A stretch of 50,194 nucleotides of DNA from Scytonema tolypothrichoides VB-61278. GTDB lineage: Bacteria > Cyanobacteriota > Cyanobacteriia > Cyanobacteriales > Nostocaceae. Made by a program: the position numbers and the translations under genes. Positions 18,289 through 23,483 of this stretch are shown here, piece by piece; positions within the stretch are counted from its first letter, which is position 1; the number at the start of each line of letters is the position of its first letter. Where the stretch lies: assembly GCF_000828085.3 (NCBI RefSeq), contig NZ_JXCA02000022.1, positions 18,997 through 69,190 of the forward strand, given 5' to 3'. The notes beneath the pieces are model-generated. The model saw only the letters and a program-made list of their open reading frames with translations, had not been told where the DNA came from and did no database searches.

Positions 18289-19668
18289 ATGACATATGAT
18301 TACGACCTATTTGTTATTGGTGCTGGTTCTGGAGGTTTGGCTGCTTCCAAACGCGCTGCAAGCTACGGAGCAAAAGTAGCCATTGCTGAAAATGACTTGG
18401 TGGGTGGAACCTGTGTGATTCGTGGCTGCGTTCCCAAAAAACTCATGGTGTATGGTTCCCACTTTCGGGCTTTGTTTCATGACGCGGCTGGTTATGGCTG
18501 GAAAGTGGGTGAAGCACAACTAGACTGGGAACATTTCATCACAACAATAGATAAGGAAGTTCGCCGACTGTCACAACTGCACATCAACTTCCTAGAAAAA
18601 GCAGGAGTCCAACTTATACAAGGTCGTGCTACCCTAATAGACCCGCACACAGTAGAAGTAGACGGACGTAAAGTCACAGCAGACAAAATTTTGATTGCTG
18701 TTGGAGGACGTCCTATCAAACCCAATTTACCAGGGATGGAATATGCCATAACCTCCAACGAAATCTTTCACCTCAAACAACAACCAAAACATATCGCGAT
18801 CATTGGTTCGGGTTATATCGGCACGGAATTCGCCTGTATTCTGCGCGGATTAGGCAGTGAAGTGACGCAAATTATCCGCAAAGACTTGATTTTGAAAGGT
18901 TTTGATCAAGACATCCAACTTGAAATACAAGAAGGAATGATCAACCACGGAGTGCGAATTATCAAAAATACCGTAGTAGAAGCCGTGGAACAAGTCCCAG
19001 AAGGCTTAAAGTTAACTTTTTCAGGAGAACATACAGAACCAATCATTGCCGATGTGTTTTTAGCAGCAACAGGTCGCTCACCTAATATAGAAGGATTAGG
19101 TTTAGAAAATGCTGGAGTTGATATCGCTGCAACTTCGCTTGAAGGACCTGGATATAATACCATGAACGCTATAGCTGTTAACGAATACAGTCAAACTTCT
19201 CAACCGAATATTTTTGCTGTAGGTGACGTGACTGATAGAATTAATCTCACTCCTGTAGCTATAGGTGAAGGTCGTGCTTTTGCAGACAGTGAGTTCGGTG
19301 GTAACCGCCGTGTGTTCAGTCACGAAGATGTCCCCACAGCCGTATTTTCCACACCCGAAGCCGCTACAGTTGGTTTGACTGAGGCTGAAGCACGTTCTCA
19401 ATTCGGAGACGACGGCGTGAAAATTTACCGCACTCGCTTCCGTCCGTTATTCCACAGTTTAACAGGTTCATCAGAAAAGACAGTGATGAAGTTAGTAGTG
19501 GATGCTAACACAGACAAAGTGCTTGGTGCTCATATGGTGGGTGAAAGCGCAGGTGAGATTATTCAAGGGGTGGCGATCGCCGTCAAAATGGGCGCAACCA
19601 AAAAAGACTTTGATGCTACTGTTGGTATCCATCCCACATCAGCAGAAGAATTCGTTACCATGCGCTAA
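18289..19668 (+). CDS. gor: Glutathione-disulfide reductase, paralog 2
   Basis: This 459-residue flavoenzyme has the same plan as its upstream paralog: VIGAGSGGLAASKRAASYG (FAD), GGTCVIRGCVPKKLMVY with redox Cys42 and Cys47, AIIGSGYIGTEFACILRGLG (NADPH domain), FAVGDVTDRINLTPVAIGEG and a C-terminal GIHPTSAEEFVTMR. IRGCVPKKLMVY and the MR C-terminus match typical cyanobacterial Gor more closely than paralog 1. An insertion near 285-300 (SLEGPGYNTMNAIAVNEYSQ) is missing from paralog 1. It acts in the cytoplasm to regenerate glutathione. The hairpin and T-run upstream suggest its own transcription. Confidence 0.93.
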   Translation: MTYDYDLFVIGAGSGGLAASKRAASYGAKVAIAENDLVGGTCVIRGCVPKKLMVYGSHFRALFHDAAGYGWKVGEAQLDWEHFITTIDKEVRRLSQLHINFLEKAGVQLIQGRATLIDPHTVEVDGRKVTADKILIAVGGRPIKPNLPGMEYAITSNEIFHLKQQPKHIAIIGSGYIGTEFACILRGLGSEVTQIIRKDLILKGFDQDIQLEIQEGMINHGVRIIKNTVVEAVEQVPEGLKLTFSGEHTEPIIADVFLAATGRSPNIEGLGLENAGVDIAATSLEGPGYNTMNAIAVNEYSQTSQPNIFAVGDVTDRINLTPVAIGEGRAFADSEFGGNRRVFSHEDVPTAVFSTPEAATVGLTEAEARSQFGDDGVKIYRTRFRPLFHSLTGSSEKTVMKLVVDANTDKVLGAHMVGESAGEIIQGVAIAVKMGATKKDFDATVGIHPTSAEEFVTMR

Positions 19669-19673
19669 ACAAG

Positions 19674-19713
19674 TCATGAGTCGTTTGCTTTTGACAAATG
19701 ACTCATGACTAAA
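19674..19713. repeat. Inverted repeat after gor
   Basis: Left arm AGTCATGAGTCGTTTG and the complement of the right arm AGTCATGAGTCATTTG match at 15 of 16 bases, separated by 8 bases, 5 bp after the gor stop. It has no strong T-run. Its arms look like STRR heptamers in opposing orientation. It may stop transcription or stabilise the gor mRNA. Confidence 0.6.
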
Positions 19714-19733
19714 GACAGCACAAGTCAAACTTC

Positions 19734-20072
19734 ATGTCTAGTGAATTTATTTATCTTCACGGTTTTGCATCCAGTCCCAATTCTGCAAAAGCAGAGTACA
19801 TACGTACCTGCTTTGCACAAGCCAATATCAAGTTAAAAATCCCTGATTTGAATGCCGGGGACTTTTCTCACTTAACAATCACTCGCCAGCTTTCTCAAAT
19901 TGCGTCCCAATTCAATCATCATTCTACGCCAGTAACGCTTATTGGTTCCAGTTTGGGTGGTTTGAGCGCCGCCCATTTGGGACAGCAATATCCACAAGTG
20001 CAACGCCTCGTCCTTTTAGCGCCTGCTTTCGGATTTTTATCCCATTGGTTACCCAAGGTAGGAGATGAGGGG
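19734..20072 (+). pseudogene. YqiA-type alpha/beta-hydrolase gene, 5' part, interrupted
   Basis: The first 113 codons encode the N-terminal half of a YqiA/YcfP-like esterase: FIYLHGFASSPNSAKAEYI at the start and LIGSSLGGLSAAHLGQQYPQ, the nucleophile elbow G-S-S-L-G-G with the catalytic Ser. The frame meets an IS607-type element near 20072 and runs into a stop at 20093. The C-terminal half resumes at about 21941. Joining 20072 to 21941 gives GDEG-VERMQHWQKERY in frame. As it stands no full esterase can be made, unless the element excises. Confidence 0.85.
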
Positions 20073-20142
20073 CTGACAACAGAAGTGAAATAATTGGACA
20101 AGATTAGATAAGATTGGACAGTAAACAACTTATAATGAATAA

Positions 20143-20751
20143 ATGTCCAATATTATCGGCGTAAAGGAGGCAGCAGAACTGCTTGGGGTCAGTACTAAGA
20201 CAATCAGACGTTGGGAGGCGGAAGGAAAAATCAAGTCTGTGCGTACAGAGGGAGGTCACAGGCGATTTGAAATCTCACAATTGCTTGGGACAAAAACAGA
20301 TGCCAGCTTAACAATTGGTTATGCGCGTGTCAGTAGTTATGAGCAAAAGCAAGACCTAGAACGTCAAGTAATTGTCTTAGAGACGTACTGCGCCAAACAT
20401 GGTTGGTGTTTTGAAATCATTCAAGATTTAGGCAGTGGCTTAAATTACCGTAAAAAAGGACTGATACGGTTAATCAAGTTGATATGTTCATACCAAGTAG
20501 AAAGATTGGTTGTCACTCATAAAGATAGACTATTACGCTTTGGCTCAGAGCTAATTTTTACAATATGTGAAATATTTGGAGTTGAAGTTATCGTGATTAA
20601 TCGTACAGAAGACTCAACGTTTGAGGAAGATTTAGCACAAGATGTGTTAGAAATAATAACAGTATTTAGTGCGCGATTATATGGGTCAAGAAGTCATAAA
20701 AATAAACAAATAGTCAAACAGCTTAAAGAAGTAGCAAATAATTTAAAGTAG
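20143..20751 (+). CDS. tnpA: IS607-type serine recombinase transposase
   Basis: This 202-residue protein has a MerR-like helix-turn-helix at residues 1-48 (IIGVKEAAELLGVSTKTIRR, then WEAEGKIKSVRTEGGHRRFE) and a small serine recombinase domain at about 56-200 (IGYARVSSYEQKQDLERQ with catalytic Ser64; VVTHKDRLLRFGSELI; ARLYGSRSHKNKQ). In IS607 the DNA-binding domain precedes the catalytic one, opposite to resolvases, and this order is seen here. It cuts and rejoins element ends through a 5'-phosphoserine link. The stop overlaps the region just before the TnpB GTG start (1-bp gap), so both are translated together. Confidence 0.95.
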   Translation: MSNIIGVKEAAELLGVSTKTIRRWEAEGKIKSVRTEGGHRRFEISQLLGTKTDASLTIGYARVSSYEQKQDLERQVIVLETYCAKHGWCFEIIQDLGSGLNYRKKGLIRLIKLICSYQVERLVVTHKDRLLRFGSELIFTICEIFGVEVIVINRTEDSTFEEDLAQDVLEIITVFSARLYGSRSHKNKQIVKQLKEVANNLK

Positions 20752-20752
20752 T

Positions 20753-21892
20753 GTGATGTTGCTCGGATTCAAGACAGAACTCAAGCTGAACAATTATCAA
20801 CGTACCCAACTAGCAAAACACGTAGGTACTGCAAGACACGCATATAATTGGGGATTAGGCTTGTGTTTAGGAATTCTTGACCACAATCGACTTCATCCAG
20901 ATAAAAAGATTAAATTTCCAACAGCGATTGACTTACATAAATGGTTAGTAGCCATAGTCAAGCCGGAGAATTCATGGTATTACGAAGTCAGTAAATGTGC
21001 GCCACAGTATGCATTGAAAGCATTGAGAGAAGGTTTTGCAAAATGGTTTAGTAAAAAGGGAGGTAGACCGAAATTTAAGAAAAAAGGTCGTGATGATTCT
21101 TTTACGTTAGATGGAACAATTAAGGTCTTAGAACAAAAGAAAATTCAATTACCAGTAATTGGTATATTGCAGACTTATGAAAAACTACCAATTGGTCATT
21201 GCCCAAAAAATATTACTATTAGTCGTCAAGCTGATAGATGGTTTATTTCTTGGCGGATAGAAGTATCAACTTATGTGAAAGAAAAAAACATGGATGTAGT
21301 TGGAGTTGATTTAGGAGTTAAATCTCTAGCCACTCTTTCTACAGGAGAAGTTGTTAATGGAAGCAAAAGTTATAGAAAGTATCGCCAAAAACTAGCGAGA
21401 CTACAACGTCGATTGAGTCGGAAAGTCAAGCATTCAAGTAATTGGTACTCTGCGGTAATAGATGTTGCCAAACTACATCGAAAAATTGCCAACATTCGTG
21501 GAGATACGTTGCATAAATTAACTACCTATTTAAGCAAGAACCACGCAACAGTAGTGATAGAAGATTTAAACGTGTCCGGAATGTTGGCAAATCATAAATT
21601 AGCAGCTTCGGTTGCGGATATGGGTTTTTATGAATTCCGACGCCAACTTGAATACAAATGCAAGCTCAATGGCAGTAGTTTAATCATCGCAGACAGGTTT
21701 TTTGCATCAAGTAAAACCTGTTCTAATTGCGGTCATATTAAACAAGAACTCAGTTTATCTGAACGAGTTTTCGTTTGTGAACAATGTTCCTGTCAGATAG
21801 ACCGAGATTTGAACGCAGCAATTAATCTTAGTAGGTTAAGCTCTAACCGAATTCACGCCTGTGAACAGAGTGCCGCCGACGGTTCTGGATGA
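20753..21892 (+). CDS. tnpB: TnpB RNA-guided nuclease of IS607-type element
   Basis: This 379-residue TnpB has an N-terminal helical/WED-like region (about 1-170) and a split RuvC nuclease with all three acidic residues: Asp186 in VVGVDLGVKSLATLS, Glu270 in VVIEDLNVSGM, and Asp352 in DRDLNAAINL. A zinc-ribbon with CSNCGHIK and CEQCSC lies between the last two. The start is GTG at 20753 (an ATG follows directly). Known TnpBs are guided by a transposon-end RNA and cut donor sites, helping the element persist; that role is assumed here. The C-terminus (DLNAAINLSRLSSNRIHACE) is full length. Confidence 0.95.
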   Translation: MMLLGFKTELKLNNYQRTQLAKHVGTARHAYNWGLGLCLGILDHNRLHPDKKIKFPTAIDLHKWLVAIVKPENSWYYEVSKCAPQYALKALREGFAKWFSKKGGRPKFKKKGRDDSFTLDGTIKVLEQKKIQLPVIGILQTYEKLPIGHCPKNITISRQADRWFISWRIEVSTYVKEKNMDVVGVDLGVKSLATLSTGEVVNGSKSYRKYRQKLARLQRRLSRKVKHSSNWYSAVIDVAKLHRKIANIRGDTLHKLTTYLSKNHATVVIEDLNVSGMLANHKLAASVADMGFYEFRRQLEYKCKLNGSSLIIADRFFASSKTCSNCGHIKQELSLSERVFVCEQCSCQIDRDLNAAINLSRLSSNRIHACEQSAADGSG

Positions 21893-21940
21893 AGCAGGAA
21901 GCAGACCGGACAACGTTATGTCTAACTTTGTCCAAGTTTT
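21850..21940 (+). ncRNA. Possible TnpB guide RNA (reRNA/omega-RNA) region
   Basis: For TnpB elements the guide RNA usually overlaps the 3' end of tnpB and runs to the right element border, with the guide derived from flanking DNA. The stretch from the tnpB tail to 21940 is the expected position, and the guide would begin with GTAGAGCGGATGCAGC in the esterase gene. This is a positional inference; no structure was computed. Confidence 0.35.
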
Positions 21941-22252
21941 GTAGAGCGGATGCAGCACTGGCAAAAAGAAAGATATCTGATGGTTTACCACTATGGGGAA
22001 AACAAACCACTTCCTCTAAGTTACGATTTCGTTACAGATGCTCGTCAATATAAAGAGGAGGCGTTACAACGTCCCATTCCCACCCTTATTTTGCACGGAC
22101 GAAATGATGAGGTGATTCCGATTCAAGCCAGTCGCGACTTTGCCCAACAGCGTCCTTGGGTAGAGTTGATAGAACTTGACAGCGATCACGGTTTAGGTGA
22201 TGTGATGACGGAAATTTGGCAAACAATTCAGCTGTTTTGCCAGTTACCGTAA
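21941..22252 (+). pseudogene. YqiA-type alpha/beta-hydrolase gene, 3' part, interrupted
   Basis: This frame encodes the C-terminal half of the esterase: HWQKERYLMVYHYGENKPLP, then IPTLILHGRNDEVIPIQASR with the catalytic Asp, and ELDSDHGLGDVM with the catalytic His. An ATG at 21950 could start a fragment of 100 residues, but it lacks the nucleophile and would be inactive alone. Upstream codons GTA GAG CGG continue the frame of the 5' part, showing the insertion site. Confidence 0.85.
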
Positions 22253-22293
22253 AGTTGTATAATTAACGATCCTTAGTCATTCACGATTTTTTG

Positions 22294-22328
22294 CTAATGA
22301 CTGATGACCAATAACTAATGACTAAATT
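22294..22328. repeat. CTAATGA-type heptamer STRR before hisC
   Basis: Five consecutive 7-bp steps read CTAATGA, CTGATGA, CCAATAA, CTAATGA, CTAAATT and end exactly at the hisC ATG (22329). Confidence 0.85.
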
Positions 22329-23483
22329 ATGCTGCCATTCATCAGGTCAGACTTAGCGCAATTTACCGCTTACAAACCTCATCCCAGTAGCGATACTGCT
22401 CAAAACGTCCAAGCATCTATCCAAATTGACCGCCTAGATACAAATGAAAGTCCCTACGATCTGCCATTAGAGCTAAAAGAGAAACTAGCTTGGACATATC
22501 AGCAGCAGATTGAGACGAACCGTTACCCTGATGGCGGACATGAAACACTCAAGAGTGCGATCGCCGAGTATGTCAATGAATCTGCCCATCTTTGGCCATC
22601 TGTTTTCACACCCTCCCATATTTCCGTTGGTAACGGTTCAGATGAACTCATACGCTCGATACTCATAGCTAGTTGCTTAGGGGGGGAGGGTTCTATTCTA
22701 GTGGCTCAACCCACTTTTTCAATGTACGCTATTTTGGCACAAACTCTTGGGATTCCCGTTGTTAAGGTAGCTAGAAATGAGGCGAATTTTGAAATTGATT
22801 TACAAGCTGCCCAATTAGCCACAGAACAAACTCAACATCCTCCCATCCGGGCAGTCTTTGTCGTTCATCCGAATTCACCCACAGCTAATCCCCTTACTAT
22901 AGCAGAGTTGGCATGGATTCGAAATCTACCTGAACATATTCTCGTCGTCATTGATGAAGCTTACTTTGAATTTAGTCAAGACACCCTAGTAAGTGAATTA
23001 TCACAGCGTCCTAACTGGGCGATATTACGTACATTTTCAAAAGCTTTCCGGTTAGCGGCGTTGCGAGTTGGGTATTGTGTTGCCCATCCTGAATTTATTG
23101 CCATCTTAGAAAAAGCTCGCTTACCCTACAATCTTCCCACCTTCTCATTAACAGCAGCAAGGGTTGCTTTACAAAACCGGACACTCCTATTGGAGTCAAT
23201 TCCCCAAACTCTTACAGAACGAGCAAAACTGATTCAAGCTTTATCCCAAAATCCAGCATTACAAGTTTGGGAAAGCGCGACAAACTTTGTTTATTTGCGT
23301 CTCAAACCAAATGGTTCTCACTCACAAGACGCTGGAGTAAAAAATCTTCACCAAAATCTGAAAGCTGCTGGCACCTTAGTGCGGGAAATCAACGGAGGAT
23401 TGCGAATTACTGTAGGAACTCCAGAGGAAAATGCTCGGACACTCAATAGGCTACAAGGTGCTTTAGTGAATTTTAATAAATAA
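22329..23483 (+). CDS. hisC: Histidinol-phosphate aminotransferase
   Basis: This 384-residue fold-type I PLP enzyme converts imidazole-acetol phosphate to histidinol phosphate with glutamate. Motifs: [11 protein letters not shown] at the start, [20 protein letters not shown] (PLP phosphate loop), [22 protein letters not shown] (Asp binding pyridine N) and [16 protein letters not shown] with the Schiff-base Lys238. Length and motif order match HisC; related cyanobacterial aromatic aminotransferases share the fold, so a second activity is possible. A heptamer STRR occupies the 35 bp directly before the ATG, so the ribosome binding region is repeat-derived. Confidence 0.93.

What the first reader, a model, noticed from the sequence alone, without database searches (positions are those of the whole stretch)
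19734..22252. IS607-type element splitting a YqiA-like esterase, with in-frame restoration on precise removal
Codons end at 20072 (GDEG) and resume at 21941 (VERM...) in the same frame, so excision at these borders would rebuild an esterase of about 216 codons with Ser, Asp and His intact. Both element genes look whole. Excision could thus act as a switch, as happens with developmentally excised elements in heterocyst formers; more simply it is a recent disruption.
Basis: partly seen in the sequence, partly recalled or inferred. Interest (0 to 1): 0.7.

Follow-up and report, generated by a model that had tools for sequence, protein, structure and literature searches.

The report
Recent jumping-gene insertion in cyanobacterial esterase
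A small mobile element present in six identical copies in this cyanobacterium has recently landed inside an esterase gene; removing it exactly would mend the gene, but that follows from how this kind of element moves and is no sign of a developmental switch.

Summary
A complete IS607-family element (serine transposase plus TnpB) splits a UPF0227/YqiA-like esterase. It is 1875 nt (20073-21947), followed by a GG (21948-21949) that repeats the GG at 20071-20072. The host gene resumes at 21950, not 21941. The mended product would be 213 codons (GDEG-MQHW), not about 216 (GDEG-VERMQHW).

The genome holds six copies identical over 1875 nt at unrelated places, and a congener holds at least one more with 27 differences, so this is a recently active insertion sequence. 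All 99 relatives' esterase loci examined are uninterrupted, 98 without an indel near the join. A second copy splits a response-regulator gene, which GG-to-GG excision would also mend in frame. In-frame restoration is therefore automatic and says nothing about a switch.

Eight of eight insertions compared (six here, one congener, one Stanieria relative) lie just after RRGGG. That fits the (G)GG target of IS607 and resembles the 5-nt TAM published for RAGATH-18-type IS607 TnpBs. A weak RAGATH-18-like RNA lies at the right place. If TnpB is active, it would cut the mended gene and favour retention. The developmental-switch reading has no support; excision itself was not observable here.

The parts
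19734..20072 (+). 5' part of UPF0227/YqiA-like esterase (113 codons; the open frame runs on to a stop at 20091-20093 inside the element)
   Evidence: ORF; PF05728 6.9e-29; 92-94% DNA identity to four of the five congeners with a match and 88% to the fifth; the sixth congener, G002, had no match
20068..20072 (+). AGGGG just left of the element: RRGGG target / TAM-like motif; its last two bases (20071-20072) are the GG core
   Evidence: RRGGG in 8 of 8 insertions compared; RR precedes 196 of 966 GGG in the window and 112 of 422 in the joined flanks of seven copies; TAM AGGAG/GAGGG reported in PMC11061315 (passages); (G)GG target in PMC6188088 (passages)
20073..21947 (+). IS607-family insertion sequence, 1875 nt
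   Evidence: six copies identical over 1875 nt in the genome; one congener copy with 27 differences
20093..20120 (+). left-end direct repeat ATTGGACA (20093-20100 and 20113-20120), possible TnpA binding sites (inferred)
20143..20751 (+). tnpA, serine transposase, MerR-type domain first and resolvase domain second, 202 aa
   Evidence: NF033518 IS607 transposase 218.9 bits, cut-off 110; MerR 7-42 and Resolvase 58-189
20753..21892 (+). tnpB, RNA-guided nuclease, 379 aa (GTG start, or ATG at 20756)
   Evidence: NF040570 283.2 bits, cut-off 100; PDB 8iaz_A 1e-51 over residues 3-360
21858..21900 (+). RAGATH-18-like core of the presumed guide RNA (reRNA)
   Evidence: 24.6 bits, below gathering 44.9; the only matches in the own genome at E up to 10 are the six copies, none over the cut-off
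21901..21949 (+). 3' flank of the presumed reRNA with hairpin arms 21908-21918 / 21923-21933, ending in GAGC + GG
   Evidence: hairpin; that a conserved 3' flank follows RAGATH-18 is from PMC11061315; RNA itself inferred
21948..21949 (+). GG core, right-hand copy
   Evidence: follows GAGC in 7 of 7 copies and in the Stanieria relative
21950..21969 (+). presumed 20-nt guide, equal to the esterase sequence after the insertion site
   Evidence: inferred from position (20-nt guide best for ISFba1 TnpB in PMC11061315)
21950..22252 (+). 3' part of the esterase (100 codons plus stop)
   Evidence: PF05728 2.8e-15, model positions 107-187

Best explanation
An autonomous IS607-family insertion sequence has recently inserted into a conserved cyanobacterial UPF0227/YqiA-like esterase and split it, very likely inactivating it. 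Shown: complete element, exact borders, six identical copies, uninterrupted site in relatives, GG core, RRGGG at each insertion compared. Inferred from the family: TnpA excises the element as a circle through GG-to-GG exchange and reseals the donor site, so any precise excision restores the reading frame. Also inferred: TnpB with an RNA from the element's right end, whose guide copies the esterase sequence after 21949, would recognise RRGGG plus that sequence. That is exactly the mended gene; cutting it would copy the element back from another chromosome copy. The element thus tends to keep the gene broken and does not act as a switch.
For: Six copies 100% identical; congener copy at another place with 27 of 1875 differences and both genes open. 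Uninterrupted site: 99 of 99 relative loci span the join, 98 without indel at residues 106-122, 0 stops. Empty places similar to two other copies agree with the same GG-core borders: for L002 five loci span the join and four of them read GGG just before it (L176, L178, L180, L184; L179 reads GAG); for L005 three loci (L145, L146, L151) align ungapped across the join, but only 24 nt beyond it, and they are members of a dispersed repeat. A second copy (L003) splits a CheY-like gene (PF00072) that is likewise restored in frame. Transposase family cut-off passed. RRGGG in 8 of 8. RAGATH-18 matches in the own genome only at the six copies. Closest natural solved TnpB 8iaz. TAM and (G)GG from passages of PMC11061315 and PMC6188088. 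Both esterase halves show dN/dS 0.08-0.20 between the window and six relatives, so no visible decay.
Against: No excision, circle or cleavage was observed; no reads are available. The RAGATH-18 match is below Rfam's gathering score; the same loose search (E up to 10) also gave matches below the cut-off in 5 of 14 control genomes, so weak hits occur by chance. Folding of 21780-21949 is no better than shuffles (z -0.47). NCBIfam's IS607_TnpB exception model is not passed (276.2 bits, cut-off 350), although the general guided_TnpB model is. Only 1 of 8 flanks is exactly a published TAM (GAGGG). For two of the six copies (L001, L006) no clean empty site was found, and for L003 only distant relatives, one without (L131) and one with (L133) a gap at the join.
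Confidence: 0.93

Rival explanations
1. A developmentally or environmentally controlled excision switch: TnpA removes the element in heterocysts or under stress and turns the esterase on, like the nifD, fdxN and hupL elements.
For: Precise excision would give an intact frame with Ser, Asp and His. The genome has HetR. [quoted passage not shown]
Against: Six identical dispersed copies; no interruption in 99 of 99 relative loci examined; transposase is IS607 type and far below the XisF cut-off; restoration in frame is automatic and happens at a second gene; I know of no heterocyst role for this kind of esterase (recalled, not searched).
Confidence: 0.03
2. Low-frequency reversible phase variation: stochastic IS607 excision in polyploid filaments gives mosaic esterase-positive cells.
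For: IS607 is proposed to excise as a circle and reseal the host DNA (PMC4058570, passages); both genes are open.
Against: No sign of selection for it; the presumed TnpB guide would target the mended site (inferred). Not testable without reads.
Confidence: 0.04
3. An IStron-like or split-protein arrangement in which the gene still works despite the insertion (RNA splicing, or two polypeptides that assemble; the 3' part does begin with ATG at 21950).
For: The downstream frame opens with ATG directly after the GG core.
Against: No group I intron match at E up to 1 in 19500-22500 and only 70 nt of left end before tnpA; the nucleophile Ser lies in one half and Asp and His in the other.
Confidence: 0.02

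Closest known systems
IS607-family insertion sequences (for example IS607, ISC1904, ISC1926, IS1535, ISChh1)
   Same: TnpA with N-terminal MerR-type domain and C-terminal serine-recombinase domain; tnpB downstream; GG core and (G)GG target (PMC6188088)
   Different: Nothing fundamental beyond sequence divergence; left flanks extend the preference to RRGGG in 8 of 8 insertions compared
RAGATH-18-guided IS607 TnpB (ISFba1; that PDB 8iaz is this protein is recalled)
   Same: TnpB aligns with 8iaz over residues 3-360 (1e-51); RAGATH-18-like RNA at the 3' end of tnpB; G-rich 5-nt motif left of the insertion resembling TAM GAGGG
   Different: RNA match is weak (24.6 bits against 44.9) with a shortened inner part; most flanks read AAGGG, not AGGAG or GAGGG; activity untested
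Heterocyst interruption elements (nifD/xisA, fdxN/xisF, hupL/xisC)
   Same: Element with its own recombinase lies inside a gene of a cyanobacterium that carries HetR; exact removal restores the frame
   Different: IS607 transposase, six identical copies, position not shared with the relatives examined, gene with no heterocyst role known to me (recalled)

Membership tests
IS607 family | serine transposase with DNA-binding domain before the catalytic domain | tested here: met
   MerR 7-42, Resolvase 58-189; NF033518 equivalog 218.9 bits, cut-off 110
IS607 family | insertion at GG with exchange over the GG dinucleotide | tested here: met
   GG on both sides of 7 of 7 copies; uninterrupted site of the matching length in relatives for the window copy (98 of 99 loci); similar empty places for L002 and L005 agree
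IS607 family | excision through a circular intermediate that reseals the host DNA | not testable with these tools
   needs reads or PCR
RAGATH-18-guided IS607 TnpB | RAGATH-18 RNA at the 3' end of tnpB | tested here: inconclusive
   24.6 bits at the expected place, below gathering 44.9; six matches in the own genome, all at the six copies, while 5 of 14 control genomes also show matches below the cut-off; none in the Stanieria relative. A search of 10 of 20 other loci gave none, but its E limit of 0.5 was too strict to list even the near-identical congener copy L030
RAGATH-18-guided IS607 TnpB | TAM AGGAG or GAGGG directly left of the target | tested here: inconclusive
   8 of 8 left flanks are RRGGG; exact GAGGG in 1 of 8 and AGGAG in 0 of 8; cleavage not tested
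Heterocyst interruption element | XisF/XisA/XisC-type recombinase | tested here: not met
   XisF model 47.4 bits, cut-off 375, resolvase part only; XisA and XisC not compared here (tyrosine recombinases, recalled), whereas this is a serine recombinase
Heterocyst interruption element | same insertion kept in several relatives (common, not universal) | tested here: not met
   0 of 99 relative loci examined are interrupted at this site
Heterocyst interruption element | excision in heterocysts | not testable with these tools
   no reads or expression data
IStron | group I intron at the element's 5' end | tested here: not met
   no group I intron match at E up to 1 in 19500-22500

The most novel reading that the evidence does not exclude
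The TnpB guide system of this cyanobacterial IS607 decides which insertions survive: only insertions after RRGGG give a retargetable empty site. In polyploid filaments each excised, mended esterase copy is cut and converted back, so the element locks the host gene in the broken state by an RNA-guided drive on the chromosome.
Probability: 0.3. Interest if true: 0.4.

Novelty: new member of a known kind. Interest (0 to 1): 0.2.

Why it matters
It removes a tempting switch hypothesis and gives exact borders for a recently active IS607 in filamentous cyanobacteria (polyploid as a rule, recalled). If the TnpB reading is right, this genome is a natural test bed, with six identical elements carrying six different guides, for whether RNA-guided retention fixes insertions in polyploid chromosomes.

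Tried and rejected
Core GG at 20070-20071 instead of 20071-20072: rejected, because the empty site would be one base shorter and out of frame, while relatives' sites have the length given by 20071-20072. IStron: no group I intron. Free-energy test of the 3' RNA: uninformative (z -0.47). RAGATH-18 in other IS607-like loci: no match in the 10 searched, but that search would have missed a match as weak as the window's, since it did not list the near-identical copy in L030; none in the Stanieria locus, although the letters GATTGAAGCAGAAA there resemble the window's GATGAAGCAGGAA (by eye). The faster-looking 3' half of the esterase (89% against 94% DNA identity to the closest relative) was checked by dN/dS; both halves stay at 0.08-0.20 against six relatives, so no decay is claimed. 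Empty sites for copies L001 and L006 were sought without a clean result; in L006 two relative genomes carry extra sequence at that place. Copies in relatives were not counted exhaustively: one search scored only up to 5 candidates per genome (it listed 5 of the 6 known own copies).

Full report
What is there. The window lies in a 7.89-Mb genome (G000, contig C5). Between a gene resembling a pyridine-nucleotide disulphide oxidoreductase (18289-19668) and one resembling a histidinol-phosphate aminotransferase (22329-23483; both ORFs, names by eye) lies an esterase gene cut in two. The first part (19734-20072) and second part (21950-22252) match consecutive stretches of UPF0227, model positions 2-104 and 107-187 of 187. 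The first part also matches YqiA weakly (46.2 bits, cut-off 252 for the whole protein).

The insert. The DNA between is a complete IS607-family element. TnpA (202 aa) has a MerR-type domain followed by a resolvase domain and passes NCBI's IS607 transposase model (218.9 bits, cut-off 110). Its solved relatives include catalytic domains of ISC1926, ISC1904 and IS1535 transposases. TnpB (379 aa) passes the guided_TnpB model (283.2 bits, cut-off 100) but not the IS607_TnpB exception model (276.2, cut-off 350). Its best natural match among solved structures is 8iaz, over residues 3-360; an AI-designed nuclease scores higher. That 8iaz is the ISFba1 TnpB of PMC11061315 is recalled and was not checked.

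Borders. The genome has six copies; a search with 1868 nt gave six 100% full-length hits plus five partial ones, four of them at 64-74% identity and one of 42 nt. The six are identical over 1875 nt. A congener, G002, has at least one more copy, with 27 differences and both genes open. All seven read host-GGG | CTGACA...GTAGAGC | GG-host. Host sequence resumes at 21950.

Empty site. Of 58 relatives searched with the 5' half, 35 had a match; I fetched the best 19 and left the weaker 16. From named genomes I took the best 80 of 175 loci (for example Scytonema, Brasilonema and Nostoc). The two sets overlap in part (83 distinct aligned proteins). Of these 99 loci, 99 run through the join without interruption and 98 have no indel at residues 106-122; the one exception was not looked at further. 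None has a stop, and Ser, Asp and His are kept in 99 of 99. The closest relatives read GATGAGGCG-ATACAGCG where the window would read GATGAGGGG-ATGCAGCA. The exact mended product is 213 aa...GDEG-MQHW.... No esterase was found in G002 with the 5' half (89% complete genome). For the other copies, empty places were sought with flanks in 12 genomes each, own genome included, and compared. L002 has five loci that span the join, four reading GGG before it and one GAG. L005 has three ungapped matches, which belong to a dispersed repeat and end 24 nt past the join. L003 has only distant relatives, one without and one with a gap at the join. L001 and L006 have none that is clean.

Why in-frame restoration is not special. 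IS607 is proposed to excise through exchange at a GG and to reseal the host DNA (PMC4058570, passages), and it inserts at (G)GG with no duplication of host sequence (PMC6188088, passages). Any precise excision therefore restores whatever was there. Locus L003 is a second example: another identical copy splits a CheY-like receiver gene near its start (PF00072 for the remainder), and the GG-to-GG join gives one open frame. At the other four copies I see no split gene: open frames of 91-113 aa span the join at L002 and were not followed, and no frame of 70 aa or more spans it at L001, L005 and L006.

Age. Six identical copies, a near-identical copy in a congener, no interruption in the relatives examined, and no decay in either half (dN/dS 0.08-0.20 for the window against six relatives) all say recent. 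The 3' half is somewhat more diverged in DNA (89% against 94%), but by synonymous changes too.

TnpB and the target motif. The five bases left of the element are RRGGG in 7 of 7 copies: AAGGG in five, AGGGG in the window, GAGGG in one. In the only more distant relative I examined, from a Stanieria plasmid, the flank is also AAGGG, and that element also ends GAGC-GG (its borders are read from similarity, and the second match in that record was not examined). In the window RR precedes 196 of 966 GGG, and in the joined flanks of the seven copies 112 of 422. Eight of eight is therefore unlikely by chance (about 3e-6 with the first rate and 2.5e-5 with the second, my arithmetic; 1.4e-5 for seven of seven with the first rate), though the motif was chosen after seeing the flanks. 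[quoted passage not shown] A RAGATH-18 match lies at 21858-21900, at the 3' end of tnpB and running past its stop. It is weak (24.6 bits, gathering 44.9). In a whole-genome search at E up to 10 the only six matches are the six copies (150 of 1380 candidates scored), but weak matches also occur in 5 of 14 control genomes, none over the cut-off. By position the guide would start at 21950. PMC10711439 reports that the fixed right-flanking nucleotide belongs to the RNA scaffold in the IS607 element ISXfa1 (passages). The mended esterase would then be the nuclease's target. A preprint held in the library describes retention and drive by TnpB of IS605-type elements (it counts IS607 with these) and tests it on plasmids (PMC11870625, passages). 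These steps are inferred for this element.

Switch hypothesis. The host has a HetR gene, so a heterocyst former is plausible. A survey of interruption elements (PMC4874684, passages) shows that small elements with serine recombinases do occur in genes without known N2-fixation roles, which keeps the idea from being absurd. But the recombinase here is an IS607 transposase, the element is dispersed and identical, and its position is not shared with any relative examined. I put the switch at about 3%. In the four literature searches made I saw no report of an IS607 element serving as a developmental switch in cyanobacteria; that is a reading of the listings, plus passages of six papers.

Verdict. 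An ordinary, recent, probably still mobile IS607 insertion, correctly spotted, with the right border 9 nt off.

Noticed in passing
L003 (G000:C5:525277-530144): Another identical copy splits a CheY-like response-regulator gene shortly after its start; 424 of the 500 nt beside it have a 95% identical second copy about 1.6 kb away.
   Followed up: partly
L006 (G000:C1:856812-861679): At this copy's site two relative genomes (L156; L157 and L163) carry extra sequence flanked by a repeated stretch of about 15 nt, and the last 35 nt or so of the left flank recur elsewhere in several genomes: a dispersed repeat family.
   Followed up: no
L005 (G000:C2:986303-991170): The left flank contains two dispersed repeats (about 92 nt and 170 nt) present many times in this genus.
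   Followed up: no
L202 (Stanieria cyanosphaera PCC 7437 plasmid pSTA7437.01): A 71% related IS607 element with the same AAGGG left flank and GAGC-GG right end.
   Followed up: partly
window 21829-21900 and short matches in G013: Short matches (75-77%) to element positions 1757-1828 occur at four places in one relative genome, with no longer match listed there (where only 5 of 22 candidates were scored); possibly guide-RNA remnants or non-autonomous elements.
   Followed up: no
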